NCBI RefSeq assembly: GCF_011927785.1
Contig: NZ_JAATJK010000001.1
Span: forward strand, 6,136,001-6,200,000
DNA: 64,000 nucleotides
DNA from: Micromonospora profundi
GTDB taxonomy: Bacteria > Actinomycetota > Actinomycetes > Mycobacteriales > Micromonosporaceae
Reading direction: 5' to 3'
A program made the position numbers and the translations under genes. This document shows, in pieces, positions 32,474 through 51,891 of the stretch. Each line of letters opens with the position of its first letter. Within the stretch, counting starts at the first letter, position 1. The notes beneath the pieces were generated by a model, which was given only the letters and a program-made list of their open reading frames with translations, did no database searches and was not told the origin of the DNA.

Positions 32474-33886
32474 GTGAGGTTCCTGCGCCGCTACGTGCCG
32501 CGAGAGCCACAGATCCGTACGCTGGCCATCGCCGCACTCGTGGACTCGATCGGTAGCGGGCTCTTCCTTGCTCTTCTTCCGGTCTTCGTGGTGACGGAGC
32601 TGCACGTTCCGGCCGTGCAGGTTGGCCTGGTGGTAGGGGCGGCCAGCGTGTTCGGGCTGGTGTCACCCTTCCCCGCCGGCCACCTGGCTGACCGGTTTGG
32701 CGCGGCCCCTGTCTGGAGTGGGCTGCTGGTCACCCGGGCGGCCTGCTACACCGGCTTCCTGTTCGTCGACTCGCTGGTGCAGTACGCGGTCATCGCGTGC
32801 CTCTGCACGATGCTCGATCGAGCCAGCGGCACGGTGCAACAGACCTACGTCGTGTGCCTCGCCGCCGGAAGCAACCGCTCCGAATCGATGGCAGCCCTAC
32901 GGACGGTGAAGAACATCGGACTGAGCGTAGGTCTGGTGGGTGCCGGTGGCCTCATCGCGATTGGCGGCCGAGGGGCATTCCTGGCCGGCTTCGCGGTAAA
33001 CGCCGCTTCGTACCTGGTGCTGCTGACCACGGTACGCACGATCGAACGTCGTCGACGCGCTGGAATGGCCACCGCCGCGCCTGCCCCGGTACAGCAGGCG
33101 GTGCCGGACTTGACCGCTTCCCCGAGCGCCGCCCACGGGGCCGGTCCACCACCCGTGCTCGGCGGCCCAGCATCACCGCTGCGTAATCGCGCGTACGTAC
33201 TTCTCACGGCCGGAAACGCGATCCTCCTGCTGCACGACTCGGTACTTTTCACCCTCCTCCCACTCTGGGTGATCACCCGCACGTCGCTGCCGCACGGCTT
33301 GGTCGGCCCCCTGCTGGCACTGAACACCGTGCTCACCGTCGCCGTGCAGGTGCCGCTGACCCGCTGGTCCGATGGCGTCACGGCGGCCCGGCGGATGCTG
33401 CTGCTAGCGACGGTGCCGCTGTTGGGAGCGTGCGCGCTGTTCGCTGCGTCCGAGCCAGCGCCGCAGCTGGTGGCTATCCTCCTGGTCGCGGCGGCGGTGG
33501 TTCTGCTTACCGCCGGGGAGAACCTGCACACGGTGGGCGCATTCGAACTGGCGCACCAGTTGGCCCCGGACCGTTTCGCCGGAAGGTACCTCGGTCTGTT
33601 CAACGTCGGCGTGTCGGCGCAGATGGTGTTCGGGCCGCCGGTCATGACCGGGCTGGTACTGCGGGGCCCGCTGGGGTGGCTGGGCCTGGCCGCCGCGTTC
33701 GCGGCCGGAGCGGGTGCGCTGCTGGCCGGGGCACGCGACCCGGACAAGAACCAGACCCGCCTGGCACGTCGTTCGGACACCCCGCGGCGCTTCCGGTCGC
33801 GGCCGCCCAGCATCCCCGTTCCAGTCCCGACACCCGTCGCCGGCGCGAGTGCGCCGACGGTTGGGTCGACGTCGGAGCAGACCTGA
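32474..33886 (+). CDS. MFS exporter at the edge of the phosphonate cluster
   Basis: A ~470-residue major facilitator with about 12 helices. It begins RFLRRYVPREPQIRTLAIAALVDSIGSGLFLALLPVF, with the inter-helix loop PFPAGHLADRFGAAPVWSG resembling the MFS signature and a long Pro/Ala-rich central loop. GTG 32474 places the first helix correctly. It ends 10 bases before an ATP-grasp ligase with its own AAGGAGAG, so the pair is one unit. It is the likely efflux pump for the phosphonate product (inference from location). Confidence 0.8.
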   Translation: MRFLRRYVPREPQIRTLAIAALVDSIGSGLFLALLPVFVVTELHVPAVQVGLVVGAASVFGLVSPFPAGHLADRFGAAPVWSGLLVTRAACYTGFLFVDSLVQYAVIACLCTMLDRASGTVQQTYVVCLAAGSNRSESMAALRTVKNIGLSVGLVGAGGLIAIGGRGAFLAGFAVNAASYLVLLTTVRTIERRRRAGMATAAPAPVQQAVPDLTASPSAAHGAGPPPVLGGPASPLRNRAYVLLTAGNAILLLHDSVLFTLLPLWVITRTSLPHGLVGPLLALNTVLTVAVQVPLTRWSDGVTAARRMLLLATVPLLGACALFAASEPAPQLVAILLVAAAVVLLTAGENLHTVGAFELAHQLAPDRFAGRYLGLFNVGVSAQMVFGPPVMTGLVLRGPLGWLGLAAAFAAGAGALLAGARDPDKNQTRLARRSDTPRRFRSRPPSIPVPVPTPVAGASAPTVGSTSEQT

Positions 33887-33896
33887 AGGAGAGACG

Positions 33897-35174
33897 ATGT
33901 CGGGCACCGAACACGTGCTGATCGTCGGCGGCGGCCGGGAGATTCCCCAGTTGCTGCGGCGGCATGGAGCTGGCAGTCGTACGTCGGTGCTGTGCCAGCT
34001 CCCTCTGCTGCCGAAGCTGCGTGACGTCGACGAGCACGAGCGTGTCATCGGGTTGCGTGCGGACGCCTCCGACGAGGAGTGGATCGTGGCGGCGCAGCAG
34101 GTTCACGGGGCCTCGCCCGTTACCCGCATCGCATCCTTCGGCGAGCGTGACCAGATTCGGCTGGCGGTGGTCGGCAGCGCTCTGGGGCTGTCCACGCACA
34201 CTGCCGAGACGGTGGCGGCTGTGCACGACAAGCACCTGATGCGGCGGGTCCTCGCCGACGCGGGCGTGGAGAAGGTCGTGGCCGTCCGGCTCGACAACGA
34301 GGCGGCCGTCGTCGAGTGGGTGCGCGCGAATCCGGGCACCTGGGTCCTCAAACCCGTCGACGGTACGGCGAGCGCCGGGGTGGCGCTGGTCCGTAGTCAT
34401 CGGGAGGCGGCGGCGGCCTACCAGCGCTGCGTGGCCACGGAGCACACTGGCCGACGCCACTCACCCGAGGTGCTTCTGGAGGAGTATCTGACCGGGCCGC
34501 AGGTGAGCGTCGAGTCGCTGTCCGAAGACGGCGAACACGTCGTCGTGGCATACACCGGGAAATACTCCGACCCGGCAACCTTCGTCGAGTTGGGGCACGT
34601 GGTGCCGGCTGTGATCGACGACGCCGCCCGCGCCGGACTTGCGGCGCACACCACCGAGGTACTCGACGCGCTCGGCGTACGCGACGGGACCTGTCACACC
34701 GAGTTCGTGCTCACACCCGACGGGCCTCGCACCATAGAAACCCACCTTCGGGTCGCCGGAGACGAGATCCCCTACCTGGTGCATGACGCGACCGGGGTGG
34801 ACCTCATCGGGTGCGTGGTGCGGCAGACATTCGGCGAGCGGGTCCTACCTGAGGTTCGCCGTACGCTGGCGGCGACACCTGTTCGTCCGCAGGCGATCTG
34901 GTTCGGCACGGCGCCCTGTGCGGGCGAGGTGGATCGGTGGGAGGGGCTCGACGAGGCCCGCGCGGCAGGTCCGTCAGTGACGCTGACGGTGGAGGCCCAC
35001 CCCGGCGATCGGGTGGTGCCGCTCGGAGACTCGCACTCCCGGGTGGTGTGGGCCCGTGCCGAAGGCGGGACCGCCGACGAGGCGCTGCGTCGCGCGTACA
35101 CGGCCGTCGCCGCGTGTCGGTTGGTCGTGACCGTACCGACCGTGCCCGACGGCGGCGTCCAGACAGCCCTGTGA
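33897..35174 (+). CDS. ATP-grasp amide (amino acid) ligase 1
   Basis: A 425-residue ATP-grasp ligase. It has an N-terminal Rossmann-like domain (HVLIVGGGREIPQLLRR), the ATP-grasp core with WVLKPVDGTASAGVALV (phosphate loop) and VLLEEYLTGPQVSVESLS, and the Mg-binding block HTEFVLTPDGPRTIETHLRVAGDEIP. The ExH/GDEIP ending is shared with ligase 2 but not ligase 3. Enzymes of this class join a carboxylate, via an acyl-phosphate, to an amine, as in dipeptide antibiotics. A phosphonoacetate or amino acid carboxylate is the likely substrate. Confidence 0.87.
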   Translation: MSGTEHVLIVGGGREIPQLLRRHGAGSRTSVLCQLPLLPKLRDVDEHERVIGLRADASDEEWIVAAQQVHGASPVTRIASFGERDQIRLAVVGSALGLSTHTAETVAAVHDKHLMRRVLADAGVEKVVAVRLDNEAAVVEWVRANPGTWVLKPVDGTASAGVALVRSHREAAAAYQRCVATEHTGRRHSPEVLLEEYLTGPQVSVESLSEDGEHVVVAYTGKYSDPATFVELGHVVPAVIDDAARAGLAAHTTEVLDALGVRDGTCHTEFVLTPDGPRTIETHLRVAGDEIPYLVHDATGVDLIGCVVRQTFGERVLPEVRRTLAATPVRPQAIWFGTAPCAGEVDRWEGLDEARAAGPSVTLTVEAHPGDRVVPLGDSHSRVVWARAEGGTADEALRRAYTAVAACRLVVTVPTVPDGGVQTAL

Positions 35175-35241
35175 CAGGTGGCAGGCCGTGCCCCGGCACC
35201 GGGTCACTCCGGGTGCCGTGCCGGGGCGTCGGCCGTGTCGC

Positions 35242-36285
35242 TCAGGAGAGGATGTCGCGGGTATCGAGTACGCCGAAGCGCTCCGGTCGGTACCAGCGGG
35301 CCTCACGGTCGGTGTCGGCGACCTGGTCGGCGACGTCGAGAACGAGCGCGAACAGGGCCATCCGGACGGGGATGCCGTTGTCGGTCTGCCGGAAAATCGC
35401 GAGCTCGGGACGGCTGTTGAGGTCGTCGGCGAGTTCGCTGGCCCCACCGCGGCTGTCGCGCGGGAGTGGGTGCATCAGCACGGTGCCGGGCCGGCACACC
35501 TTGTCGTACAAGGCGGCGTCGATCCTGAAGCGGTCCCCGTTGGCAGCGACGGTGCTGCCCTGCGGCAGACGCTCCTGCTGCACCCGCGTGGCGTAGATGA
35601 CGTCCACGTCGCGGATGCCTTCGGCCAGGTTGTCGGTCAATTCGACGGTGTGCCCCTGCTGCCGTAGCTTGAGCACCAGTTCGTCCGGGATCTGTAGTTC
35701 CTCTGGCGCGACGCAGACGAACGTCAGCCCGCTCTCCAACGCCAGCAGCTTGGTGAGGCTGTGCACCGTCCGTCCGTAGCGGAGGTCGCCCACCACCGCG
35801 ATCCGCATCCCGCCCAACCCGCCTGGATGTAGTCCCCGCTCGCGGCACAGCGTGTACAGGTCGAGTAGCGCCTGGGTGGGGTGTTCGCCCGGTCCGTCGC
35901 CACCATTGATCACGGGGACGTTGATTGCGGCGGCGAACTCCGCCACCGCACCCTCCTCCGGGTGCCGTACGACGAGAATGTCCATGTATCCGCTGACCAC
36001 GCGGCTGGTGTCGTAGACCGACTCGCCTTTGGCCATCGAGGAGAAGGCGAACCCCGTGGTCTCGCGGACGTATCCGCCAAGACGGTTGAAGGCCGCCCCG
36101 AAGCTCAACCGCGACCGGGTACTCGGCTCGAAGAACAGGTTACCGAGCACCGCTCCCTCGAGCACCCGCGTCGACCGCTCCCGTCGCGCGTACGGCAGCA
36201 TCCGGTCCGTCACCTCGAAGAGCCGCTGGATATGGGCCAGCTCGAACTGCTCCACGGTAAGAACGTGCGCCCCGGCGAACACCAC
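35242..36285 (-). CDS. pyrB: Aspartate carbamoyltransferase, probable self-resistance copy
   Basis: A 347-residue complete ATCase catalytic chain. Carbamoyl-phosphate loop FFEPSTRSRLSF (STRTR in E. coli), mobile loop SSMAKGES with the Ser/Lys pair, RHPEEG, GEHPTQ, GDLRYGRTVHS, TRVQQER and HPLPR are all present, so it should be active. Two changes flank the phosphate loop: Thr to Ser (STRSR) and the usual SFE to SFG. The HPLPR type is that of E. coli/eukaryotic enzymes, whereas the actinomycete pyr-operon enzymes I know have HPGPM. No pyrI, pyrC or carAB is nearby. GTG 36285 has AGGAGG seven bases upstream and is preferred to GTG 36303. It sits inside a phosphonoacetate-forming cluster. Confidence 0.93.
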   Translation of the reverse strand: MVFAGAHVLTVEQFELAHIQRLFEVTDRMLPYARRERSTRVLEGAVLGNLFFEPSTRSRLSFGAAFNRLGGYVRETTGFAFSSMAKGESVYDTSRVVSGYMDILVVRHPEEGAVAEFAAAINVPVINGGDGPGEHPTQALLDLYTLCRERGLHPGGLGGMRIAVVGDLRYGRTVHSLTKLLALESGLTFVCVAPEELQIPDELVLKLRQQGHTVELTDNLAEGIRDVDVIYATRVQQERLPQGSTVAANGDRFRIDAALYDKVCRPGTVLMHPLPRDSRGGASELADDLNSRPELAIFRQTDNGIPVRMALFALVLDVADQVADTDREARWYRPERFGVLDTRDILS

Positions 36286-36415
36286 TCGACCGCCTCCTGT
36301 CACCTGCCCGACGGCGGACCCATCGGGGCACTCGCCACCGTAGGAGCTTACCGAGGTCAGACGCCTGACCCGACGTCGGCCACCGTGAGCGGTGAGGTGA
36401 AGTCGAAAGGGGCGC

Positions 36416-37648
36416 TCAGGTCGCTCCGACCGTGACGGTGAGCGTGTCGATCGCCCGTCGGGCGGCCTCCTCGGCCGTCTCGCTGTCGTCCGCCACGCTG
36501 GTGCAATAGCCGACCCGATCGACGGAGTCCCGGATGGGGGTGATCAACTCGTCGCCCGGATCCTTGAGGAGCGCACACCCGGTGACAAAGGGCAACGACA
36601 TGGCGTGCCCGGTGTGCTCCACCGAGACGAGCCGACCCGACCGTGGCGGAACCAGATACCGGATGGCACCGACCCGGCGCGGCCGGTCGGGTGCGACGAG
36701 TAACGCGTCGAGGCGCGGGAGTACGCGTTCACCCAGCACCTGTCGGACGGCCAGCTCCACCAGGTCGATGCCGGCCGCCGCAGCTAACAGGGCAGGGATC
36801 TGGTCGCCACCGGCCCGTGTGTGGGTCTCCACGACGCGGGGTCCTCCGCCGGTGAGGATCAACTCCGTGTGCGTGGGGCCCTGGGTGATTCCCATGGCGT
36901 TCAGGACCTGCCGCACGTAGGCGACCACGTGGCTGTCGTCGGGGCCAGGCTCGCGGACCACATGCCCGAGTTCGACGAAGTTGTCGTCTTTGATCTTGTG
37001 GGTGATGCCGACGATCCGGTGCTCACCTCGCTCCGAGAAAGCCTCGACGCTCACCTCGGCGCCAGTGAGGAACGGCTCGACCACCACCGGGGACCCGGGC
37101 GGTGCCGAGTGGACCGCACGATCCAGCCCTTGATCGAGGTCAGTGAGATCATCGACCCTGACGATGCCGAGGCTGCCTGTGCCGCACTGCGGCTTGAGGA
37201 TCACGGGGAGCCCGTGGTCGTCGGCGAAGCGGCGCAGCTCTCCGACCGTGGAGACGGTCGTCGAGGGCACCTCCTCGACGCCCGCGGCGCTGAGCCGGCG
37301 GCGCATCGCCACCTTGTCGTACACGGCCGCGATGACCTCTTCGCGATGAAACGGCAGGTTCAGGGCCGACGCGATGGCCGCCGCGTGGTCCTGGTCGAAC
37401 TCGCCGAACGCCCCGACCGCCTCGATCGGCTGCCGTCGGTGCACGTGCTGCGCGACGGCCACCCACTCCTGCGGGTCAGCGGCCTCGTCGAGAGCGAGTA
37501 CCCGCGCACACTCCGTCGGGTGGCGGACCTTTGCCAGTCGCTGCGTCGCGACGAGGGTGGTGATGCTGACGGCGGGGTTGAGGCGACGTAGCACCGGCGT
37601 GACATCCCGAGCGCCGGCTACGACGAGCACGTGCTTGAACACCGTCAT
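36416..37648 (-). CDS. ATP-grasp amide (amino acid) ligase 2
   Basis: A 410-residue ATP-grasp ligase and paralogue of ligase 1. Matching blocks are HVLVVAGARDVTPVLRR, VILKPQCGTGSLGIVRV, VVVEPFLTGAEVSVEAFSE, NFVELGHVV and HTELILTGGGPRVVETHTRAGGDQIP. The two share the ETHxRxxGDxIP ending, so they probably bind similar carboxylate acceptors. It is transcribed divergently from pepM and is followed by the ATCase on the same strand with a ~130-base gap. ATG 37648 has GGAG upstream. A candidate for the phosphonoacetyl-aspartate amide bond, given its pairing with the ATCase. Confidence 0.87.
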   Translation of the reverse strand: MTVFKHVLVVAGARDVTPVLRRLNPAVSITTLVATQRLAKVRHPTECARVLALDEAADPQEWVAVAQHVHRRQPIEAVGAFGEFDQDHAAAIASALNLPFHREEVIAAVYDKVAMRRRLSAAGVEEVPSTTVSTVGELRRFADDHGLPVILKPQCGTGSLGIVRVDDLTDLDQGLDRAVHSAPPGSPVVVEPFLTGAEVSVEAFSERGEHRIVGITHKIKDDNFVELGHVVREPGPDDSHVVAYVRQVLNAMGITQGPTHTELILTGGGPRVVETHTRAGGDQIPALLAAAAGIDLVELAVRQVLGERVLPRLDALLVAPDRPRRVGAIRYLVPPRSGRLVSVEHTGHAMSLPFVTGCALLKDPGDELITPIRDSVDRVGYCTSVADDSETAEEAARRAIDTLTVTVGAT

Positions 37649-37938
37649 CAGGCTCCAGATCGACGATTGTGATAGTCATTCGTACTAATTAGACAGACCC
37701 AGTGGTGTATTCCAGCCAACTGGCAGGTTGATGCGACTGCAACGAGCAGCGACCTAGCGTATACAAAGCCCGATGCGGCGTGGCAGGCTGAGCAAGCGCT
37801 GCGCACCGTCCTTTATGGACACTGATGGTGGACGTCCATGACTGTCCCCATCGCACATGTCCGCGCCGCAGCAACACGTGCCTTCGCGTCACCGTCGACG
37901 CTCGAAACTCCACGGACGACGTGATCGTGAGGAGAACC
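37649..37938. promoter_or_regulatory. Divergent promoter region of the phosphonate cluster
   Basis: This 290-base AT-richer gap drives the pepM operon rightward and the ligase 2/ATCase operon leftward. A perfect palindrome TGGACGTCCA (37829-37838) lies ~100 bases before pepM, with a further ATGGAC half-site at 37815-37820. A TAATTAG-rich stretch near 37685-37692 is the best leftward -10 candidate. No regulator gene lies in the cluster. Confidence 0.45.
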
Positions 37939-38889
37939 ATGAGCAAGGCCAAGAGCCTCGCCGACCTGTTCCAGCGTCCCTCGCTGGACTTTCTGATGGG
38001 AGCGCACGACGCCCTGTCGGCGCAGATTGCGCAGGATTGTGGCTTTCCCGGTGTATGGGTCTCGGGGCTCGGGCTCTCGGCCTCCAGCGGCCTCCGTGAC
38101 TCCAACGAGCTCTCGTGGACCCAGGTCATGGAGCGCACCGAGCTTGTGGCGGACCGGGTCTCGGTGCCGGCACTTGTCGATCTGGACACCGGATACGGTG
38201 ACTTCAACAACGTCCGGCTGGTGATGCGCAGGCTGCAACGGGCGGATGTGGGCGGCGGATGCATCGAGGACAAGCTGTTCCCGAAAACCAACTCGTTCAT
38301 AGGTGCGGGACAGCAACTGGCCGACCCGCACGAGTTCGGTGGCCGGATCAAGGCAGCCAAGGACACGGTCGGGGACGAGGTCTTCCTGGTCGCCCGATGT
38401 GAGGCGCTGGTCGCCGGCCGGTCGATGACCGAGGCCACCGACCGGTGTGGCGGTTACGCCGAGGCGGGCGCCGACGCCATTCTGATCCACTCCAAGATGA
38501 CCTCACCTGACGAGATCGTCAGCTTCATGGCCTCGTGGGACGGACGGGTCCCGGTCGTGATCGTGCCGACCAAATATTCGAAGGTGCCTGCGGATGTCTT
38601 CGAGCGGGCCGGAATCTCGGTGGCGATCTGGGCTAACCAGACCCTTCGGGCAGCGATCCGCAGCATGGAAAAGCTCTGCGTGGCCCTGCGCGAGCAGCGC
38701 ACGATGCTGCACCTGGAAGGCGAGATCGCTGACCTGTCGCGGGTGTTCGACCTGACCAACAACGCCGAGCTGGAGCTGGCCAAAGAGCTGTACGCGAGCC
38801 ACCCGGCGGGCAGCTCGCTGAAGGCGCTGGCCGATGACGGCGGGCCTGCGGGAAACCACCTGGTCGGCGCGGGCCCGACGTCGGCTTGA
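37939..38889 (+). CDS. pepM: Phosphoenolpyruvate mutase
   Basis: A 316-residue PEP mutase, which isomerises PEP to phosphonopyruvate and forms the C-P bond. The diagnostic signature EDK(x5)NS is present as EDKLFPKTNS (residues 110-119), separating it from isocitrate-lyase relatives. Also present are VDLDTGYGD (Asp cluster for Mg2+), LVARCEAL and ILIHSK. The length is typical. ATG 37939 follows GTGAGGAG; the longer upstream open frame is not expected to be coding. It is the first gene of a rightward operon running to the Nudix gene, with most junctions overlapping. Confidence 0.97.
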   Translation: MSKAKSLADLFQRPSLDFLMGAHDALSAQIAQDCGFPGVWVSGLGLSASSGLRDSNELSWTQVMERTELVADRVSVPALVDLDTGYGDFNNVRLVMRRLQRADVGGGCIEDKLFPKTNSFIGAGQQLADPHEFGGRIKAAKDTVGDEVFLVARCEALVAGRSMTEATDRCGGYAEAGADAILIHSKMTSPDEIVSFMASWDGRVPVVIVPTKYSKVPADVFERAGISVAIWANQTLRAAIRSMEKLCVALREQRTMLHLEGEIADLSRVFDLTNNAELELAKELYASHPAGSSLKALADDGGPAGNHLVGAGPTSA

Positions 38890-38938
38890 GCCACATGGAC
38901 AGCAGGACGACAACGGCCCCAGACAGCGGCGCGGCACC

Positions 38939-40171
38939 ATGACGACAACCGCCACATCCGGGGCCGGCCTGGATCCGGTCCAGGAAACCGACCGCCTCCA
39001 CCGGGCCTGGTCGCACCGGTCGGCGAATCTCGGTGATCCGGTCGCCGACCTGCTGGGACACCTGCACGACAAGGTGCCGTACTACCGCGGCGGCCGGGGC
39101 GGACGGCTCCCCGGGTTGCCGGTCGTCGACCGCGCGCTGTACCGGGCGCGCGGCGATGAGTTCCGGGCGGCAGGGGCGACACCTGCCTACACCATCACCT
39201 CCAGCGGCAGCACCGGCGAGCCGCTGGAGGTGGGGCTCGACGAGGCGGCGTGGTACGCGGTCAACTACCACTTCTTTCACCAGATCGTCGAGCTCGCCGA
39301 TGTGCCGATGGAGACGTTCCACGCCGGTTCGGTGGCGGTCGCGTTCGTCAGCAACAAGCCATCCCGTCGGGCGGTCGTTCGGCCACTGCCCGAGCTGCGG
39401 CATGGCCTGTACGCGCGGGTCCAGCTCGCCGCGCCGGCCGCCGACCTCGCCGCGCTGTTCGACCGGCTCCGGCCAGCCATCCTGTACGGCAAGCCCACCT
39501 ACCTGCTCGACTTGCGACTGGCCCTCCTGCAAGCCGGCGTCACCTGCCCGACCTGGGCACCCCGGCTGCTGCTGACGAGCGGTGAGCCGCTGCACAGTGA
39601 CGACCGGGCGAGGCTCACCGGCTACTTCGGCGCGCCTCTGGTCGACGCTCTCGCTTCCACGGAGGGCGGGCTGATCGCAGCCACTCGTCCAGACGAGCCG
39701 GAGTACGAGGTGTTCGGCGACAACGTCCGCCTCGAGGTGCGCACTGGCGAGGGCTCGGTGGCCGCCGCCGGGGAGGGCGAGCTGCTGGTGACGAATCTGA
39801 TCTACCGCGACATGGTGTTCGCGCGGTACCGCACCGGCGACCGGGCGGTGCTCGACCCCGGGAGAGCCGACGGCATTCAGCGGCTCGCCCGGCTGTGGGG
39901 GCGTGAGCCGCAGGAGGTCAGGTTCCGCACTGGTCCGATTCTGGCCGAGACCCTCACCCGGCGGCTCGGGTTCCTTCCAGGCCTGGCGGATTTCCAGGTG
40001 CGGATGGAGCCGGTCGGTGCGGTGCTGCGGTGGATGCCGGACGGCATCGGTGCCGACCCGGAGCCTGCCCTTCGGGAGGTCATGGCCGAGCTGCTACCGA
40101 GGGAGGACGTCCGGTACGAGCGGTGTGCCCGGATAACGCCGCTGGGTGGCAAGAAACGGAGATTCGGATGA
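38939..40171 (+). CDS. PaaK-like adenylate-forming enzyme
   Basis: A 410-residue member of the phenylacetate-CoA ligase/coenzyme F390 synthetase group of adenylating enzymes. ATP phosphate-loop TITSSGSTGEPLEV is near residue 80, the adenylate-binding region LASTEGGLIA, hinge RYRTGDRAVL, and the catalytic C-terminal Lys in GGKKRRF. It would activate a carboxylate as acyl-AMP; there is no carrier domain in the protein and no separate carrier-protein gene that I recognise. Its stop overlaps the aminotransferase ATG. The substrate may be phosphonoacetate, an amino acid or an aryl acid; the sequence does not decide. Confidence 0.82.
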   Translation: MTTTATSGAGLDPVQETDRLHRAWSHRSANLGDPVADLLGHLHDKVPYYRGGRGGRLPGLPVVDRALYRARGDEFRAAGATPAYTITSSGSTGEPLEVGLDEAAWYAVNYHFFHQIVELADVPMETFHAGSVAVAFVSNKPSRRAVVRPLPELRHGLYARVQLAAPAADLAALFDRLRPAILYGKPTYLLDLRLALLQAGVTCPTWAPRLLLTSGEPLHSDDRARLTGYFGAPLVDALASTEGGLIAATRPDEPEYEVFGDNVRLEVRTGEGSVAAAGEGELLVTNLIYRDMVFARYRTGDRAVLDPGRADGIQRLARLWGREPQEVRFRTGPILAETLTRRLGFLPGLADFQVRMEPVGAVLRWMPDGIGADPEPALREVMAELLPREDVRYERCARITPLGGKKRRFG

Positions 40172-44374: not shown

Positions 44375-44388
44375 CCTTAGGAGAAACT

Positions 44389-45630
44389 GTGGCACTCCTC
44401 TTCACTCGTACCAACGCTCTCCTGTTGCTGGTGCCGAAGACCGGCAGCACGTGGATCCGGGCCAAGGCGCGGCAACTCGGGCTCGCCGTCGAAACGGTCG
44501 GTGATCCGGCGATGCGTGATCACGACCTGCTCGACCAGTACGACCGGTCCCGGTACCGGCACATCGGGGCCTTCGTCCGCGACCCGATCGAGTGGTACCG
44601 GTCGTACTGGGCCTACCGGATGGAGCGGGGCTGGCGTCCGCAGTATCCGCTGGACGAGCACTGCGCCAGCGACGACTTCGAAACCTTCGTCCGTAAGGCC
44701 GCGTCGATCCTGCCGGGTGCTCTGGAGAACATCTACGCGTCCTACGTGGGCCCTCCGCAGGCGGAAATCGACTTCGTCGGGCGGCAGGAGCACCTGGTCG
44801 ATGACTTCGCCCGTTTCCTGCGCCTGATCGGTGAGGAGTTCGACGAGGCGACGTTGCGGGAGGGTAGCCGGGTCAACGCGACGACGACGGTGCCGGACTA
44901 TCCGGAGGAGCTGAAGGAGCTCATCACCCTGTCCGAATGGAACACGATGCGGCGATTCGGCTATCTCGCCGACCGGCCCGATCCGTTCGGACTGGCAGAG
45001 ATGCAGGCACAGTTCCCCGAGTATGCGGAGGACCACCGTCTGCTGGCCCTCTGGACGGAGAAGATCCACTGGGCACCGGACGACGTGAAGAGGGCGGCTG
45101 GCCGGCCGATCCGCCAGCAGACCCGGCACGCTCGCGTACACAGCAACTTCGCCCTCCTCGCCCAGCACAAGTACGGCGACCAGGACTACGCCGAACGGCG
45201 GTATCAGCGGGCGCTCGAGCTGGATCCCAACCACCCGCGCACGCTGTGCAACTACGCGCTGTTCCGCTGGCAGGTCCGGGGAGAACCGCAGGAGGCCCGC
45301 CGTCTGATGCTGCGTGCCCTGGCCGGCCGGCCGATGCACCCGTACACCCTAGGCAAGCTGGCCCGGCTCTCGGACCGCGCGCTGGGCGACCCGGATCTGG
45401 CCGAGGTGCTGTACCGGCAGAGTCTCGCCGGCAATGACAGTCAGCAGGATGTGCCTGTCGAACTGGCCGAACTGCTCGTGCGACAGGGACGTCCCGGTGC
45501 GGCGGTCGGTTTGCTCACCGAGCGGGCTGCCCGCCCGGATGCGAGCGACATCATTCGGTCGGCCCTGGCGGTTCTGCGGCAGCGCGTCGAGCCGGCGGAC
45601 TCGGCCCAGCTCCAGCCAGCGTTGGCCTGA
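44389..45630 (+). CDS. Sulfotransferase-family protein with C-terminal TPR region
   Basis: A 413-residue protein. The N-terminal ~240 residues match PAPS-dependent sulfotransferases: the 5'-phosphosulfate loop PKTGSTW at residues 16-22 and the 3'-phosphate block GAFVRDPIEWYRSYW. The C-terminal ~160 residues are TPR-like (NFALLAQHKYGDQDYAERRY, then RALELDPNHPRTLCNYALF and more). GTG 44389 follows TAGGAGAA. It predicts sulfation of a cluster intermediate or binding of a sulfated partner. A fused sulfotransferase-TPR architecture is unusual in a phosphonate cluster. Confidence 0.8.
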   Translation: MALLFTRTNALLLLVPKTGSTWIRAKARQLGLAVETVGDPAMRDHDLLDQYDRSRYRHIGAFVRDPIEWYRSYWAYRMERGWRPQYPLDEHCASDDFETFVRKAASILPGALENIYASYVGPPQAEIDFVGRQEHLVDDFARFLRLIGEEFDEATLREGSRVNATTTVPDYPEELKELITLSEWNTMRRFGYLADRPDPFGLAEMQAQFPEYAEDHRLLALWTEKIHWAPDDVKRAAGRPIRQQTRHARVHSNFALLAQHKYGDQDYAERRYQRALELDPNHPRTLCNYALFRWQVRGEPQEARRLMLRALAGRPMHPYTLGKLARLSDRALGDPDLAEVLYRQSLAGNDSQQDVPVELAELLVRQGRPGAAVGLLTERAARPDASDIIRSALAVLRQRVEPADSAQLQPALA

Positions 45631-45662
45631 CGAACCAAACCCTCTGAGGAAGGACACCACGA

Positions 45663-46538
45663 ATGTCTGGCGACGACTTCTCGGGCGAGAGCATCGTCCG
45701 TAACCATGTAGCTGCCGGCGGCAAATCATTCGACGCGCTGGTCGCCGAGTCACGCGCGATGCTCGAACGCAACCGCATCGTCCTGATCCGCGATTTTCCG
45801 CTCGACCCTGATCAGTACCTGGCCTTCCTGGGGCAGTTCGGCACCCCGTTGTCGAATTACTCCTCCCGCAGCGACCTGGCCAAGGACGATCCGCATCCGC
45901 AGATCAACCGGGTCAAGTACAAGCCGAAAGGCCAGTACGTCAAGCAATCCGTGCACTACGTCGGCGGCGAGCTACGGCCGCACTCCGCCCGCTCCTGGTG
46001 CACCCCTCGGCCGGCGTACTTCGCGATGCTGATGGTCGACCCGGGTTGGCGGGACACGCCGGAGGGCGAACGGGGTGAGTCGGTGGTGCTGGCCTGGCGG
46101 CACCTGTTCGAGCAGCTGTCAGCCCGGGACGGTGAGGCGTTCGAGGCGCACCTGGCCCACCTCACCGGTACCGCGATCACGTTCGAGGCCAACAACGTAC
46201 GCGAGGAACTGTCGAACCTGCCGCTGTGCTACCCACTTGCCGACGCTGCCGCTCCGCTCGATCTGGGAGTACGGATGAAGCAGGATATCCAGGACAAAAT
46301 TATGGGTCTGCGTGATCAGATCGCGGACTACGACGGTTACCGGCGTGCGCTCGACTACGTGGTGGAGAACGCCGCCGAGGAGAAATTCCAGGCGTGCTTC
46401 CCGATGGACAGTGGCGACCTGCTGCTCCTGGACAACAACCGGTTCGGGCACGGCCGCCGGAAGATCGTCGGTGAACGTACCGAGGATGGCGCCACCGCGG
46501 TCAACAAACGGGAGCTGTGGAGCGTCACCGTTGTCTGA
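45663..46538 (+). CDS. TauD/SyrP-like Fe(II)/2-oxoglutarate enzyme with HxA in place of HxD/E
   Basis: A 291-residue jelly-roll 2-oxoglutarate-dependent enzyme. N-terminal LIRDFPLDPDQYLAFLGQFG is typical of the TauD/clavaminate-like branch. The proximal metal motif reads His107-Ser108-Ala109 within LRPHSARSW, where oxygenases have HxD/E. The distal His263 is in LDNNRFGHGRRK, and Arg283 is about 20 residues later as expected for the 2-oxoglutarate carboxylate. Loss of the carboxylate ligand to Ala is the hallmark of the radical halogenases (SyrB2 type), in which chloride takes the site. The alternative is a non-canonical oxygenase. ATG 45663 follows GAGGAAGGA. Confidence 0.82.
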   Translation: MSGDDFSGESIVRNHVAAGGKSFDALVAESRAMLERNRIVLIRDFPLDPDQYLAFLGQFGTPLSNYSSRSDLAKDDPHPQINRVKYKPKGQYVKQSVHYVGGELRPHSARSWCTPRPAYFAMLMVDPGWRDTPEGERGESVVLAWRHLFEQLSARDGEAFEAHLAHLTGTAITFEANNVREELSNLPLCYPLADAAAPLDLGVRMKQDIQDKIMGLRDQIADYDGYRRALDYVVENAAEEKFQACFPMDSGDLLLLDNNRFGHGRRKIVGERTEDGATAVNKRELWSVTVV

Positions 46539-46568
46539 CCGCCCCAACCACAACGGAGGAGATTCCGC

Positions 46569-46772
46569 ATGACCAGTCCCGAGACCACTCCCGCCGCCGA
46601 CCGGGCCGCCCTGGCCGATAGCTGTGCCCAACTCCAGGGTGAACTGGACGCTCTGCTGCAGGGCCAGGACGGGCAGAAGGCCGTCGACTCGTTGGACAAC
46701 GCCGTCGCCTCGCTCAAAGAGGTGGAACAGCGCAACGTCTCGTCGGTGCAGCTCGTTGCCCTGGCCGACTGA
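46569..46772 (+). CDS. 67-residue helical peptide ending in Asp
   Basis: A small protein with a good GGAGGAG site, between the 2-oxoglutarate enzyme and the DUF1611-like gene. It is predicted as one or two amphipathic helices (AALADSCAQLQGELDALLQG, then KAVDSLDNAVASLKEVEQ), with a single Cys19 and the C-terminus SSVQLVALAD. No family is recognised. It could be a scaffold peptide extended by the ATP-grasp ligases, a RiPP-like precursor or a structural partner. Its position inside the operon argues for a dedicated role. Confidence 0.7.
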   Translation: MTSPETTPAADRAALADSCAQLQGELDALLQGQDGQKAVDSLDNAVASLKEVEQRNVSSVQLVALAD

Positions 46773-46860
46773 CGGCCCGGACGTATGGATGGGTGGACGC
46801 AGCTGAGCGTCCGCCCGTCCCCGTACCGCCCACCTACCCACCCACCGACGAAACAGGTAG

Positions 46861-47979
46861 ATGATGTCGTTGGCACCGACGAACGGCTGGCGTGCCCGTG
46901 CCGGCGGACTCTCGGTCAAGCTGATCAACTCGTGTGTGCGGCGGGCCGCCGATCTTCTCGACGGACGTGAGCAGCTCTTCCCCCGCAACCCGGCCCCGCG
47001 CGATGGTGACCTCGTCGTCGTGCGGTGCCTGGCCGGAACCGGCGCCTACGATCATGTCGAGGACAGCGCCGGAATGCCGGTCAAGCTGTACCCGGGTGAC
47101 CTTTTCGTTGCGACGCTCGGAACACGACGCTCCGGCACCAACCTCATCGGCGAGGTGCCGACGGCCCCCGTCGCGGCCGGCGACCGGCTGGATCTCGTCG
47201 CGCAGGGTGGCCTGGTGGCCAGGTGCACGGCGGTCCCGGCCTACTACGGCACCCGTGCGCTGCCGCTGGAGGTCGTCGGTTTTCCGGCGGACGTCGCCGG
47301 GCGCGTCCGCAACATCGACGAAGCCCCCGTCGTGCCGATCCGCGACAGCCGACGGCCGCGCACCGACACTCCCGTGCTGTTCGTCGCCGGAACCTCGGCC
47401 GAGGTGGGCAAAACCACGCTCGTCTGCCGGCTGAACATCGTGGCCAGGGAGTACCGACCGGGTCTGCGTACCGCGGCCATCAAGGCGTGCGGCACCGGGC
47501 GGGCGAAGGACGTGTTGAGCTACCGCGCCGCGAACTACGACGTGGTGACCGATTTCGTGGACGCGGGCATGCCGTCGACCTACGGCGTGGACCCGCACCG
47601 GTTCCGGGCCATGCTGCACACGCTCATTGAGCACTGCGCGGAACGCGTCGACCTCATCGTGGTGGAGATCGGCGGCGACTTCCTGGAGGCGCGGGCACCC
47701 GAGGCGCTGGAGATCATGGCGGAGATCGACGCCGCCTGCGTGATGATGGTCAACGACGCGATGGGCGCGCTGGAAGGCCTGCGCCAGCTCCGGGAGCTCG
47801 GAAGGGCACCGCTCATGATCGGTACGTTCCGGCAGAACCTGCACGCACTTGCCGACCGACTCGCCGTACCCGTGGAACGGGTCATCAACTCCACGGACGC
47901 GGCTGCGCTGCGGCGCCTCCTCGACGCGACGTGCCCGTCGGAGCAGACGGCCGGCCTGATGGCCGGAGCGGCTGGCTGA
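46861..47979 (+). CDS. DUF1611-like P-loop protein
   Basis: A 372-residue protein. An N-terminal beta-rich domain (~1-160) precedes a DUF1611/dethiobiotin-synthetase-like P-loop domain with Walker A GTSAEVGKTT (177-186), then AAIKACGTGRAKDVL, a VTDFVDAG block, an LIVVEIGGDFLEARAPEAL Walker B-like strand and VERVINSTDAAAL. The family includes DgcN, which N-acylates D-glutamate, and other enzymes of amino-acid modification. A role in acylating or activating an acidic amino acid, such as Asp, would fit the cluster but is only an inference. The start region has a weak AGGTAG. Confidence 0.75.
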   Translation: MMSLAPTNGWRARAGGLSVKLINSCVRRAADLLDGREQLFPRNPAPRDGDLVVVRCLAGTGAYDHVEDSAGMPVKLYPGDLFVATLGTRRSGTNLIGEVPTAPVAAGDRLDLVAQGGLVARCTAVPAYYGTRALPLEVVGFPADVAGRVRNIDEAPVVPIRDSRRPRTDTPVLFVAGTSAEVGKTTLVCRLNIVAREYRPGLRTAAIKACGTGRAKDVLSYRAANYDVVTDFVDAGMPSTYGVDPHRFRAMLHTLIEHCAERVDLIVVEIGGDFLEARAPEALEIMAEIDAACVMMVNDAMGALEGLRQLRELGRAPLMIGTFRQNLHALADRLAVPVERVINSTDAAALRRLLDATCPSEQTAGLMAGAAG

Positions 47980-47981
47980 CC

Positions 47982-48713
47982 ATGGACGAGCTCATGCTCC
48001 TCGCCGCGGTGGCGTTACTGGCGGTGGTCCAGTCGGTGTTCGGGGTCGGCCTGCTGCTCTTCGGCACGCCCCTGCTGCTGCTGGCAGGTTACCCCTACCT
48101 CGAACTGCTCTACGTCCTGCTGCCGGCGTCGGCCACACTGAGCGCGTTGCAGCTGCGCTTCGACCACTCCGTACGGCCGCGTGAGGTCGGCGGCTACGTC
48201 CTGTGGGTCGTCCCGGCGATTTTCGTTGGCACGGTTACGTCACTGCTCTATCTGACAGGCCTCGACATCCGCATTCCGGTGGCGGTTCTGCTCGCGGTCA
48301 CCGGCGTGCTGCGCCTGAGCCAGCGGACCCGGGTGAAGCTGCAGGCGGCATGCGCTGCGGCCGGTCGGCCGGCGTTGAGCCTCATCGCCCTCGTGCACGG
48401 GCTGACCAACATGGGTGGCGGCCTGCTGGCCATGTACGCGGGTGCGCGCAGCGACCAGAAGCGCGAGGTCCACCGGATCGTGGCGGTGGTCTATCTGCTG
48501 TTCGCCGGATCCCAACTGGTGGTGCTGTACGTCGTGCACGGCCCGCCTCCGCTGGATCTACGCCTGGTCGTGTCGACGGTCGGTGTGGCCGTGCCCTACC
48601 TGCTGCTGGGCCGGCGGGTGTTCCAAGCCATGTCGGACCGCCGGTATCAAACCGCCTTCTCGGCCTTCATGTTGTGCTGTGCGGGAGTCCTCACCTGGCA
48701 GGCGGCACAATGA
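47982..48713 (+). CDS. TauE/SafE-family anion exporter
   Basis: A 243-residue membrane protein with about seven or eight helices and the two half-repeats of the TauE/SafE (sulfite/organosulfonate exporter) family, e.g. VFGVGLLLFGTPLLLLAGYPYLEL and ALVHGLTNMGGGLLAMYAG. Family members export small anions such as sulfite and sulfoacetate. Phosphonoacetate is a close analogue of sulfoacetate, so export of a phosphonate is likely. It starts two bases after the DUF1611-like stop and overlaps the dehydrogenase (ATGA). Confidence 0.85.
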   Translation: MDELMLLAAVALLAVVQSVFGVGLLLFGTPLLLLAGYPYLELLYVLLPASATLSALQLRFDHSVRPREVGGYVLWVVPAIFVGTVTSLLYLTGLDIRIPVAVLLAVTGVLRLSQRTRVKLQAACAAAGRPALSLIALVHGLTNMGGGLLAMYAGARSDQKREVHRIVAVVYLLFAGSQLVVLYVVHGPPPLDLRLVVSTVGVAVPYLLLGRRVFQAMSDRRYQTAFSAFMLCCAGVLTWQAAQ

Positions 48714-50167: not shown

Positions 50168-50191
50168 CCTGACGAGCAATTGGAGGCATAC

Positions 50192-51436
50192 GTGCGCATC
50201 CTCGTCCTGCACCAGAACAAGTTCGACCGCCTCGGGTACGCCAACGCCTTCGATCACACCCGCCACGACGTCACGTACGCCGGCACTGCCGGGTACATCG
50301 ACACGATCCCGGCTGACGTGCGCTGCACCAGGGTGGTTCTGGAGCCGGACCAGCCGGTGGTCGACCAGCTGCGTCCCCGGCTGCTGGCGTGGCCGCCGTT
50401 CGATCGGATCCTCACCCGGCACGAGCTGCTCATCGCTCCGGCAGCCGAGCTTCGGGCCGAGTTCGGTGTCCGCGGTATGCGACCCGACCTGGCGCGCAAC
50501 TTCCGCGACAAGGTGGCGATGAAGACCGCCGTCGCCGGCCGCGGCCTGCGGGTTCCACGGTTCTTGCCGGCCACCGACCTGCTCAAGGTGGACGTGGAGG
50601 TGCCATGGCGGGGCCGCACCATCGTCAAGCCGCGTGGCGGGTCCGCCAGCCGAGGAGTGTCCCTCTGCGAGGATTTCCACCAGGCCCGCGAGTTTGTCGC
50701 ACGGGAGCAGCGCGGCGACGCCAGCTTCGCCGAGCGGTACGAGGTCGAGGAGTACGTCGAGGGTGGCCTCTGGCAGATCGATGGTTTCCTGTTCCGTGGC
50801 GAACCGGTTGCGATCCAGGCCAGCCGGTACGTGGGCAGTTGCCTGTCGTTTGAGAACGGCGGGCCGCTCGGCGTGGTCCAACGTCCCCACCCCGAGCTGG
50901 AGGCGTTCGCCGTCGACTGCCTGCGTGCGCTCGGCGGTGACACGCTTACCTTTCACCTGGAGGCAATCACCACCCCGCAGGGACCGGTCTTCCTGGAGGC
51001 GGCCGCCCGGTGCGGCGGCGGCTACACGGTGACGGCCTTCCGTCGACGGACCGGAATCCACCTGCACACCCTGGACATGGCCACCGAGGTGGCGGATGAG
51101 CTGGCCACCGAGCACATCCACGCACCGGAGACCACCGAACTGCACGGGGAGTTCCAGTTCCCCGGCCACGTCTACGGCGGTGCACCGATCACCGTCGACG
51201 TACCGGCCGAACTGCTCGCCGACCCGCGCGTCCTGACGTACCAGGTCTACCCGGCCGGCAAGCCCACCCCGATGAAGGGCTCGTACCGTCCGGAGAACCT
51301 TCCGCTGTCCGGTCTGATCACCGACTCGGACCCGGATGTGCTGGAGAGCTGGCTCAGCGATCTGTTCGCCAAGGTCACCGTTACCCCGCAGTCGGGCGTC
51401 CCGGCACCGCTTGTCGCCGCGCAGGCGGCCTCGTGA
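50192..51436 (+). CDS. ATP-grasp amide (amino acid) ligase 3
   Basis: A 414-residue ATP-grasp enzyme of a different subgroup from ligases 1 and 2. It starts VRILVLHQNKFDRLGYANAF, has RTIVKPRGGSASRGVSL and YEVEEYVEGGLWQIDGFLF, and ends the metal site with FHLEAITTPQGPVFLEAAARCGGG (ExA...GGG, as in dipeptide-forming L-amino acid ligases). GTG 50192 follows GGAGG. It probably adds an amino acid to a phosphonate or peptide intermediate. Its stop overlaps the Nudix start. Confidence 0.86.
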   Translation: MRILVLHQNKFDRLGYANAFDHTRHDVTYAGTAGYIDTIPADVRCTRVVLEPDQPVVDQLRPRLLAWPPFDRILTRHELLIAPAAELRAEFGVRGMRPDLARNFRDKVAMKTAVAGRGLRVPRFLPATDLLKVDVEVPWRGRTIVKPRGGSASRGVSLCEDFHQAREFVAREQRGDASFAERYEVEEYVEGGLWQIDGFLFRGEPVAIQASRYVGSCLSFENGGPLGVVQRPHPELEAFAVDCLRALGGDTLTFHLEAITTPQGPVFLEAAARCGGGYTVTAFRRRTGIHLHTLDMATEVADELATEHIHAPETTELHGEFQFPGHVYGGAPITVDVPAELLADPRVLTYQVYPAGKPTPMKGSYRPENLPLSGLITDSDPDVLESWLSDLFAKVTVTPQSGVPAPLVAAQAAS

Positions 51437-51891
51437 CGGTACGGGTCCGGGCCATCGTCCTCACGCCTACCGACGGTTGGTTGGTGTTCCGGCGCACCCG
51501 ACCCGGCCGCGACGTCTACTGGTCCCTGCCGGGTGGCGGCGTGGAGCCGGACGACGCGGATCGCCGGGCCGCGCTGCTGCGGGAGATGCGCGAGGAGGTG
51601 GGCGGTGCGGTCTTGATCCACAGCCTCCGGCACATCCTTGACACACCGGCGGGCCAGCAGCACATCTACCTCTGCCGGATCGAGACGTGGTGCGAGGCGG
51701 AGCGGACCGGGCTGGAGTTCAGCGACCCGGCGGCGGGCGAGTATCTGCTCGAGACGCGGCGGCTGGACCACGAGACGCTGGCGGCGATCACTTTGAGCCC
51801 GCCCGGTCTTGCGGACCTGCTCGCCGACGATCTACGCCGATCCGGTGGAAACCTGTTCAGCCTGCCGGGATTGCAGGAAGGTCCGGGTTGA
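51433..51891 (+). CDS. Nudix hydrolase
   Basis: A 152-residue Nudix protein. The Nudix box is close to consensus but has one extra residue and Asp in place of the first Glu: GGGVEPDDADRRAALLREMREEVG. The usual strand WSLPGGG precedes it. It hydrolyses a nucleoside diphosphate derivative and may clear adenylated by-products. GTG 51433 overlaps the ligase 3 stop (GTGA), and it is the last gene of the pepM operon. Confidence 0.85.
   Translation: MTVRVRAIVLTPTDGWLVFRRTRPGRDVYWSLPGGGVEPDDADRRAALLREMREEVGGAVLIHSLRHILDTPAGQQHIYLCRIETWCEAERTGLEFSDPAAGEYLLETRRLDHETLAAITLSPPGLADLLADDLRRSGGNLFSLPGLQEGPG

What the first reader, a model, noticed from the sequence alone, without database searches (positions are those of the whole stretch)
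32474..51891. A phosphonate cluster predicted to make N-phosphonoacetyl-L-aspartate (PALA) or a PALA-based peptide, with a resistant ATCase
PEP mutase, phosphonopyruvate decarboxylase and a PhnY-like dehydrogenase give phosphonoacetate. ATP-grasp ligases can join it to an amino acid. The same cluster carries a full aspartate carbamoyltransferase, the enzyme that PALA (phosphonoacetate amide-linked to aspartate) inhibits as a transition-state analogue. Product logic and target gene therefore agree: the cluster should make the target-matched inhibitor and encode a protected copy of the target. PALA is known to me as a synthetic compound; a natural pathway would be striking. The extra tailoring genes suggest a decorated or peptide-masked form.
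Basis: partly seen in the sequence, partly recalled or inferred. Interest (0 to 1): 0.97.

Follow-up and report, generated by a model that had tools for sequence, protein, structure and literature searches.

The report
PALA-type phosphonate cluster with spare ATCase
A Micromonospora phosphonate gene cluster carries a second aspartate carbamoyltransferase and is predicted to make a natural relative of PALA, the classic laboratory inhibitor of that enzyme, with the spare enzyme likely shielding the producer.

Summary
Window 32474-51891 is a 17-gene cluster with PEP mutase, phosphonopyruvate decarboxylase and phosphonoacetaldehyde dehydrogenase (the phosphonoacetate route), three ATP-grasp genes and a complete aspartate carbamoyltransferase, ATCase. 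The ATCase is a second copy, of another subfamily than the genome's PyrB, and rare: 2 of 160 genomes of the genus. Its clade (34 listed proteins, 73-100% identity; 100/100 support) keeps the PALA-contact residues, apart from Thr to Ser in 30 of 34. Four of four clade loci that I opened lie in phosphonoacetate-type clusters. In Actinoplanes the ATCase is about 82% identical while the biosynthetic proteins are 27-42%: it behaves like a shared protection gene, not a pathway enzyme. Against: Nocardia colli has the pathway without the ATCase; intact contacts do not predict resistance; no call shows which amino acid is joined to phosphonoacetate. A natural PALA-type inhibitor with a duplicated target is the best reading (about 0.6); the product is probably not bare PALA.

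The parts
32474..33886 (+). MFS transporter (likely export)
   Evidence: PF07690, 117.1 bits; start codon chosen by eye
33897..35174 (+). ATP-grasp ligase AGL1, L-amino acid ligase type
   Evidence: PF13535 55.8 bits, PF18603 47.5 bits; own counterpart only in G128 among the four relatives
35242..36303 (-). Second aspartate carbamoyltransferase (ATCase)
   Evidence: TIGR00670 over cut-off; contacts; tree
36416..37648 (-). ATP-grasp ligase AGL2, L-amino acid ligase type
   Evidence: PF18603 58.7 bits, PF13535 49.9 bits; solved match L-amino acid ligase 30vh, E 6.9e-17
37939..38889 (+). PEP mutase
   Evidence: PF13714; 1m1b match; under TIGR02320 cut-off
38939..40171 (+). AMP-binding (adenylate-forming) enzyme
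   Evidence: PF00501, 26 bits, under the cut-off of 29.9; kept in both Nocardia
40168..41232 (+). PLP enzyme, CobD/HisC-like
   Evidence: PF00155 85.9 bits; TIGR01140 135.2 bits, under cut-off
41229..43220 (+). S9-family peptidase
   Evidence: PF00326, 158.3 bits
43217..44374 (+). Phosphonopyruvate decarboxylase
   Evidence: TIGR03297, 343.7 of 312.5
44389..45630 (+). Sulfotransferase-like N-terminal part with TPR tail
   Evidence: TPR matches; PKTGSTWI and AFVRDPIEWYRSYW read as PAPS-site motifs (recalled); no profile match
45663..46538 (+). TauD-type Fe/2-oxoglutarate enzyme with HSA in place of HxD/E
   Evidence: PF02668, 49 bits; HSA in 5 of 5 aligned
46569..46772 (+). Conserved 67-aa peptide, role unknown
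   Evidence: 4 of 4 aligned share VEQRNVSSVQLVAL near the C-terminus
46861..47979 (+). P-loop protein, dethiobiotin synthetase/CTP synthase-like fold
   Evidence: No Pfam match at 0.001; model pLDDT 94.7; Foldseek E 7.7e-8
47982..48713 (+). TauE/SafE-type exporter
   Evidence: PF01925, 47.2 bits
48704..50167 (+). Phosphonoacetaldehyde dehydrogenase (PhnY type)
   Evidence: TIGR03250, 729.8 of 635.65
50180..51436 (+). ATP-grasp protein AGL3, candidate phosphonoacetate-amino acid ligase
   Evidence: PF13535 21.5 of 27 bits; 3vot match E 7.3e-6; directly after PhnY in 4 of 4 clusters of this type
51433..51891 (+). NUDIX hydrolase
   Evidence: PF00293, 46.6 bits

Best explanation
The cluster encodes the phosphonoacetate route beside a second complete aspartate carbamoyltransferase, and likely makes a phosphonoacetyl-aspartate (PALA-type) inhibitor of that enzyme, with the extra copy likely keeping pyrimidine synthesis running in the producer. 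Read from sequence: PEP mutase, phosphonopyruvate decarboxylase and PhnY, a set that takes PEP to phosphonopyruvate, phosphonoacetaldehyde and phosphonoacetate. Inferred: an ATP-grasp ligase (AGL3 favoured, because it follows PhnY directly) activates phosphonoacetate and joins it to the amino group of aspartate. Inferred: the TauD-type enzyme (possibly a halogenase), the sulfotransferase-like protein and AGL1/AGL2 decorate it or mask it as a peptide, and the MFS protein exports it. Inferred: the cluster ATCase takes over when the housekeeping PyrB is inhibited, as ArgK does for phaseolotoxin producers. Its means of resistance (kinetics, loops, subunit contacts or dose alone) is open.
For: Route enzymes over or near curated cut-offs. 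ATCase is a second copy, apart from PyrB in pyrR-pyrB-pyrC, complete and with canonical aspartate and carbamoyl phosphate contacts. Rare: 2 of 160 genus, 2 of 300 family, 1 of 397 order genomes, the window's own included each time. 4 of 4 clade loci opened are in phosphonoacetate-type clusters: window, G128, N. tenerifensis, Actinoplanes. Five more clade proteins share contig length and source with a P-loop or PepM hit (P0006, P0011, P0014, P0021, P0032), and Amycolatopsis cihanbeyliensis has both an ATCase and a P-loop hit. Actinoplanes: ATCase about 82%, pathway proteins 27-42% identical; the two ATCases group at 100/98. 0 of 8 PepM-type loci without PhnY have a carbamoyltransferase. Parallel cluster with an ornithine-type carbamoyltransferase on a Priestia plasmid. 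ArgK precedent.
Against: N. colli keeps the pathway but has no ATCase of this clade (best 33%), so it is dispensable there. A second PhnY-type locus of N. colli lacks it too. The published 31A4/K. fiedleri type, to which the Actinoplanes cluster is related, is not shown to have it: the words carbamoyl and aspartate do not occur in that paper's text, and none of the few named clade members is Streptomyces or Kitasatospora. Contacts for PALA are intact, so resistance is not visible. No ligase specificity was tested; the Actinoplanes ATP-grasp protein matches AGL1 slightly better than AGL3, and its dehydrogenase is far under the PhnY cut-off (280.2 of 635.65). Much of the cluster (AMP-binding, PLP, S9, peptide) is not needed for PALA.
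Confidence: 0.6

Rival explanations
1. The ATCase is a biosynthetic enzyme: it makes N-carbamoyl-aspartate, or carbamoylates another amine, as a building block of a carbamoylated phosphonopeptide.
For: Transcarbamylases do make building blocks in the zwittermicin, viomycin and padanamide clusters (PMC4581275, passages). The ATCase is conserved and apparently active. ArgK itself also carbamoylates a pathway precursor (PMC4530439, abstract).
Against: N. colli keeps the pathway genes and lacks it. It is far more conserved than the pathway between cluster types (about 82% against 27-42%). Its residues are those of an ordinary aspartate enzyme.
Confidence: 0.2
2. The cluster makes a phosphonoacetate compound joined to another amino acid or with another target; the ATCase only feeds pyrimidine nucleotides to the pathway or is a passenger.
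For: N. colli manages without it. O-phosphonoacetyl serine is a known phosphonoacetate product (PMC12723261, passages). A NUDIX gene may point to nucleotide chemistry. A carbamoyltransferase is one of many genes that could drift into a cluster.
Against: 4 of 4 clade loci opened, in three genera and three arrangements, lie in phosphonoacetate-type clusters; 0 of 8 PepM-type loci without PhnY have any carbamoyltransferase in the stretch. The genome already has PyrB.
Confidence: 0.15

Closest known systems
Phaseolotoxin cluster with ArgK, a resistant ornithine carbamoyltransferase (Pseudomonas syringae)
   Same: A carbamoyltransferase inhibitor that mimics the transition state, made as a peptide, with a second carbamoyltransferase in the cluster that replaces the housekeeping one (PMC4530439, abstract and introduction).
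   Different: Ornithine enzyme instead of aspartate enzyme; a sulfodiaminophosphinyl group, not a C-P phosphonate; resistance is shown there and only predicted here.
Phosphonoacetate clusters of Kitasatospora fiedleri, Streptomyces sp. 31A4 and MMG1121, and the O-phosphonoacetyl serine cluster of NRRL F-525
   Same: PepM, Ppd and an aldehyde dehydrogenase leading to phosphonoacetate; ATP-grasp, TauD-type and PLP genes; PAPS-supply genes (K. fiedleri; also flanking both Nocardia clusters here) (PMC12723261, passages and sections 11-12).
   Different: Ppd is two genes there and one here, the gene order differs, and the paper's text mentions no carbamoyltransferase. The Actinoplanes cluster with ATCase is the nearer relative of that type: its PepM is 67% identical to that of 31A4.
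Rhizocticin cluster (Bacillus) with a threonine synthase homologue
   Same: Phosphonate peptide made by ATP-grasp ligases, with self-resistance in the producer (passages of PMC11867202; title of a rhizocticin self-resistance paper in the reference list of PMC13302981; that the cluster holds a target copy, RhiB, is recalled).
   Different: Other warhead and other target.
PALA (N-phosphonacetyl-L-aspartate), a laboratory transition-state analogue of ATCase
   Same: Predicted core of the product; the contacts that bind it are kept in the cluster ATCase.
   Different: Known to me as synthetic; the natural product is likely decorated. A reference title in PMC4581275 calls N-phosphonacetyl-L-isoasparagine a potent inhibitor, so a change at one carboxylate need not abolish activity.

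Membership tests
Phosphonoacetate-type phosphonate cluster | PEP mutase | tested here: met
   PF13714 over cut-off, 1m1b match; but 295.5 of 319.55 for TIGR02320
Phosphonoacetate-type phosphonate cluster | Phosphonopyruvate decarboxylase and phosphonoacetaldehyde dehydrogenase | tested here: met
   TIGR03297 and TIGR03250, both over cut-off
Phosphonoacetate-type phosphonate cluster | Phosphonoacetate is made | not testable with these tools
   Needs enzyme assay or NMR
K. fiedleri / 31A4 cluster type | Dehydrogenase, PepM and a two-gene Ppd in that order | tested here: not met
   Window has one fused Ppd and another order; Actinoplanes has dehydrogenase, PepM and split Ppd in that order
Aspartate carbamoyltransferase | Curated model and active-site residues | tested here: met
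   TIGR00670, 283.6 of 236.95; contacts kept, Ser for Thr at 64. Under the cut-offs of PRK11891 (473.7 of 560) and PRK08192 (472.1 of 512)
Self-resistance by target duplication (ArgK type) | Second copy of the target enzyme in the cluster beside a separate housekeeping copy | tested here: met
Self-resistance by target duplication (ArgK type) | Cluster copy is insensitive to the product | not testable with these tools
   No loss of PALA contacts seen
Self-resistance by target duplication (ArgK type) | Product inhibits the housekeeping enzyme | not testable with these tools
   Product unknown
PALA biosynthesis | Ligase joins phosphonoacetate to aspartate | not testable with these tools
   Three candidates; ligase class only
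PAPS sulfotransferase (44389-45630) | Match to a sulfotransferase model or structure | tested here: inconclusive
   No match; model pLDDT 53.7; motifs (recalled) and CysD/CysNC beside both Nocardia clusters favour it
Fe/2-oxoglutarate halogenase (45663-46538) | HxA or HxG in place of the HxD/E metal ligand | tested here: inconclusive
   HSA in 5 of 5 aligned; the matches to solved structures do not reach that column, so the alignment is by eye; motif meaning recalled

The most novel reading that the evidence does not exclude
PALA is a natural product family. Actinomycetes make decorated phosphonoacetyl-aspartates and carry a dedicated, horizontally shared ATCase as the antidote. A Priestia plasmid does the parallel thing for ornithine, with a phosphonate cluster and its own altered ornithine carbamoyltransferase, so bacteria hold a whole class of carbamoyltransferase-guarded phosphonate antimetabolites that chemists later reinvented as PALA and PALO.
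Probability: 0.4. Interest if true: 0.95.

Novelty: new variant of a known kind. Interest (0 to 1): 0.85.

Why it matters
PALA is the textbook transition-state inhibitor of pyrimidine synthesis, known to me as a synthetic compound. A natural route would give enzymes to make PALA analogues, an ATCase perhaps pre-adapted to it, and a rule for reading products of silent phosphonate clusters from the carbamoyltransferase beside them. In the listed parts of my ten paper searches (several lists were capped at 15 or 20) I saw no paper on a natural PALA or on an ATCase in a phosphonate cluster, and a 2026 phosphonate review has neither PALA nor carbamoyl in its text. Most subscription journals are not held.

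Tried and rejected
ATCase as the genome's only copy: rejected; three other carbamoyltransferase genes lie elsewhere, PyrB among them.

Resistance read from lost PALA contacts: rejected; all kept apart from Thr to Ser. Fifteen positions set the clade apart from the other 86 listed homologues; none is a contact and I draw nothing from them.

The P-loop gene as a marker of phosphonate clusters: rejected for distant relatives. Of 19 genomes of the class sample with a match to the Actinoplanes protein, one is the window's own; the other 18 loci (31-40% identity) show no PepM, Ppd or ATCase in the fetched stretches (three stretches are shorter because the contig ends). With the window's protein at E 1e-30 the class sample gave 1 of 394, itself.

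Sulfotransferase by profile or fold led nowhere. A plasmid search with the ATCase gave nine records at 54-60% in Burkholderiales; the one that I opened (Comamonas) lists no phosphonate genes near by, the other eight were not opened.

The comparison of PhnY-type loci (ATCase in 4 of 6) with the others (0 of 8), Fisher p 0.015, is descriptive only: the Actinoplanes locus was found with the ATCase itself, loci of one cluster type are not independent, 3 of the 8 (L091, L093, L094) showed no Ppd and may not be phosphonate loci, and two of the six dehydrogenases (Actinoplanes, second N. colli locus) are called by 37-43% identity only.
Full report
What is there. The window lies in a 6.93 Mb single-contig genome. 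Its genus is Micromonospora, inferred from genus mate G135, whose contig of 7127635 bases equals that of Micromonospora sp. WMMD1120. Genes 32474-51891: MFS, ATP-grasp AGL1, ATCase (-), ATP-grasp AGL2 (-), PEP mutase, AMP-binding enzyme, PLP enzyme, S9 peptidase, phosphonopyruvate decarboxylase, sulfotransferase-like/TPR protein, TauD-type enzyme, 67-aa peptide, P-loop protein, TauE exporter, phosphonoacetaldehyde dehydrogenase, ATP-grasp AGL3, NUDIX.

Route to phosphonoacetate. Decarboxylase and dehydrogenase pass their curated cut-offs (343.7 of 312.5; 729.8 of 635.65). PEP mutase passes the Pfam cut-off, falls short of the NCBIfam one (295.5 of 319.55), and matches solved PEP mutase 1m1b over nearly its length at E 4.9e-81. 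Phosphonoacetate as an intermediate follows from the known order PepM, Ppd, dehydrogenase (PMC12723261, passages and sections 11-12).

The ATCase is a second copy. The genome has four carbamoyltransferase genes by PF02729: PyrB in pyrR-pyrB-pyrC with carB near by (L015), ArgF with argininosuccinate genes (L016), one beside a carrier-domain protein that looks like an NRPS (L017), and the cluster copy (neighbour names are my reading of the sequences). At E 1e-60 the cluster query finds only itself in its own genome, so it is far from PyrB. The nearest NCBIfam models are PRK11891 and PRK08192 (473.7 and 472.1 bits, under their cut-offs of 560 and 512).

Clade and active site. Of 7423 homologues at E 1e-60 among 8000 scored candidates, the best 120 are listed: 34 at 73-100% identity, then a drop to 66% or less. 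The residues that hold PALA in the Arabidopsis enzyme (T137, S163, K166, R187, H215, R248, R310, Q312, L350; PMC7878868, passages) correspond to S64, S89, K92, R113, H141, R178, R240, Q242 and L280. These are invariant in 34 of 34, except position 64, which is Ser in 30 and Thr in 4; among the other 86 it is Ser in 55 and Thr in 31. The enzyme should therefore be active on aspartate, and its sequence does not announce resistance. A maximum-likelihood tree of 66 rows (33 of the 34 clade members plus the window, G128 and Actinoplanes copies; 29 of the 86 others; PyrB) gives the clade 100/100 support.

Relatives of the cluster. The second Micromonospora (G128, probably strain WMMD882) has 17 of 17 genes at 83-94% identity. 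A genome scan with PepM returned 2 loci, Nocardia tenerifensis and N. colli. N. tenerifensis has PepM, AMP-binding, PLP, S9, Ppd, sulfotransferase-like, TauD, peptide, P-loop, PhnY, AGL3, AGL2, MFS and then the ATCase (73%), on one strand. N. colli has the same without the ATCase; its genome's best match is 33%, and no significant remnant lies beside the cluster. At E 1e-30 the P-loop protein is in 2 of 150 genomes of that genus, these two. Both Nocardia clusters are flanked by divergent CysD and CysN/APS-kinase genes, which would supply PAPS; no such genes were found in the window or in the fetched G128 and Actinoplanes stretches.

The key comparison. ATCase searches gave 2 of 160 genomes in the genus, 1 of 397 in the order sample and 2 of 300 in the family sample, the window's own included each time. 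The new one, G1170, is Actinoplanes sp. L3-i22 by its contig of 12014766 bases. There the ATCase (82-83%) lies tail to tail with a different phosphonoacetate-type cluster: dehydrogenase 37%, PepM 41%, split Ppd 36%, P-loop protein 32%, ATP-grasp 27%, MFS 29%, TauD 42% identical. Its dehydrogenase scores 280.2 of 635.65 for PhnY, so its phosphonoacetate step is weaker evidence. Its PepM is 67% identical to that of Streptomyces sp. 31A4, for which phosphonoacetate has been proposed. The window, G128 and Actinoplanes ATCases, with P0003, form a group at 100/98, while N. tenerifensis, whose pathway is the window's, lies outside it. I read this as transfer of the ATCase between phosphonoacetate clusters, the behaviour of a protection gene. 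A PepM 71% identical to that of Actinoplanes, in Micromonospora G135, has neither a PhnY match nor a carbamoyltransferase in its stretch.

Counts with misses. PepM query in 160 genus genomes: 9 genomes, 10 loci. Two are the clusters with ATCase and PhnY. The other 8 loci show no PhnY and no carbamoyltransferase at E 1e-6 in stretches of about 20 kb (8 of 8), and 5 of the 8 show a Ppd. PhnY-type loci opened: 6, with ATCase in 4; the misses are both N. colli loci. Fisher p 0.015 is descriptive, for the reasons under Tried and rejected. Of the 34 listed clade proteins I could tie 8 to a cluster: the window's own and N. tenerifensis by context; P0006, P0011, P0014, P0021 and P0032 by equal contig length and source with a P-loop or PepM hit; Amycolatopsis cihanbeyliensis by organism name. 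The other 26 were not placed.

How it would work. Phosphonoacetate is activated by an ATP-grasp enzyme and joined to aspartate, which gives a mimic of the ATCase transition state. ATP-grasp ligases build phosphonopeptides in phosphonoalamide biosynthesis (PMC11867202, passages). Which ligase acts is open: AGL3 directly follows PhnY in 4 of 4 clusters of this type, but the single Actinoplanes ATP-grasp protein matches AGL1 (26%) and AGL3 (25%) about equally. Extra groups are likely: the TauD-type enzymes of 5 of 5 clusters have HSA where hydroxylases of this fold have HxD or HxE (motif and its halogenase meaning recalled), which suggests halogenation; the sulfotransferase-like protein suggests sulfation. 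The ATCase would then act like ArgK, which replaces ArgF in phaseolotoxin producers (PMC4530439, abstract and introduction).

A parallel. Plasmid NZ_CP085446.1 of Priestia megaterium KF18 carries MFS, an annotated ornithine carbamoyltransferase, two ATP-grasp genes, split Ppd, a P-loop protein (30-36% to ours), M20 peptidase, an LLM monooxygenase and PepM. Its carbamoyltransferase scores best as ornithine type (319.3 bits, under that model's cut-off of 373) but reads HDMP where ArgF reads HCLP, and WVDMEHF where ArgF reads WTSMGQE. No PhnY-type dehydrogenase is annotated there, so phosphonoacetate is not assured. It was the only plasmid record with this carbamoyltransferase at E 1e-60. If it makes a phosphonoacetyl-ornithine, the carbamoyltransferase type follows the amino acid.

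Verdict.

Noticed in passing
L074 (NZ_CP085446.1 85461-94149), Priestia megaterium KF18 plasmid: Phosphonate cluster with its own ornithine-type carbamoyltransferase whose HCLP and SMG motifs are changed; a candidate guard for a phosphonoacetyl-ornithine-like product.
   Followed up: partly
window 46569-46772: 67-aa peptide kept in 4 of 4 aligned clusters, with VEQRNVSSVQLVAL invariant near its C-terminus; carrier, scaffold or precursor peptide.
   Followed up: partly
window 45663-46538 and relatives: TauD-type enzymes of 5 of 5 clusters have HSA where hydroxylases of this fold have HxD/E, as in Fe/2-oxoglutarate halogenases (motif meaning recalled).
   Followed up: partly
window 46861-47979: P-loop protein without a Pfam match at 0.001; confident model (pLDDT 94.7) with a dethiobiotin synthetase/CTP synthase-like part; distant relatives lie outside phosphonate clusters in 18 of 18 class loci.
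   Followed up: partly
N. colli, L030 (about 20 kb beyond its first cluster): A second PepM-Ppd-PhnY-type set (41-44% to the window's) in the same genome, with AMP-ligase and carrier-like genes beside it.
   Followed up: no
L017, G000:C1 about 4716130: A further carbamoyltransferase beside a carrier-domain protein that looks like an NRPS; perhaps a diaminopropionate- or diaminobutyrate-type transcarbamylase as in PMC4581275 (passages).
   Followed up: no
window 35242-36303, residue F87: Phe at the place of Arabidopsis F161, which there limits PALA to one per trimer; it is Phe in 34 of 34 clade members and 64 of 86 other listed homologues, so this bacterial subfamily may share that behaviour.
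   Followed up: no
P0143: Acidovorax temperans has a P-loop protein 61% identical to the cluster's, on a contig of 48 kb: possible transfer of the cluster to a betaproteobacterium.
   Followed up: no
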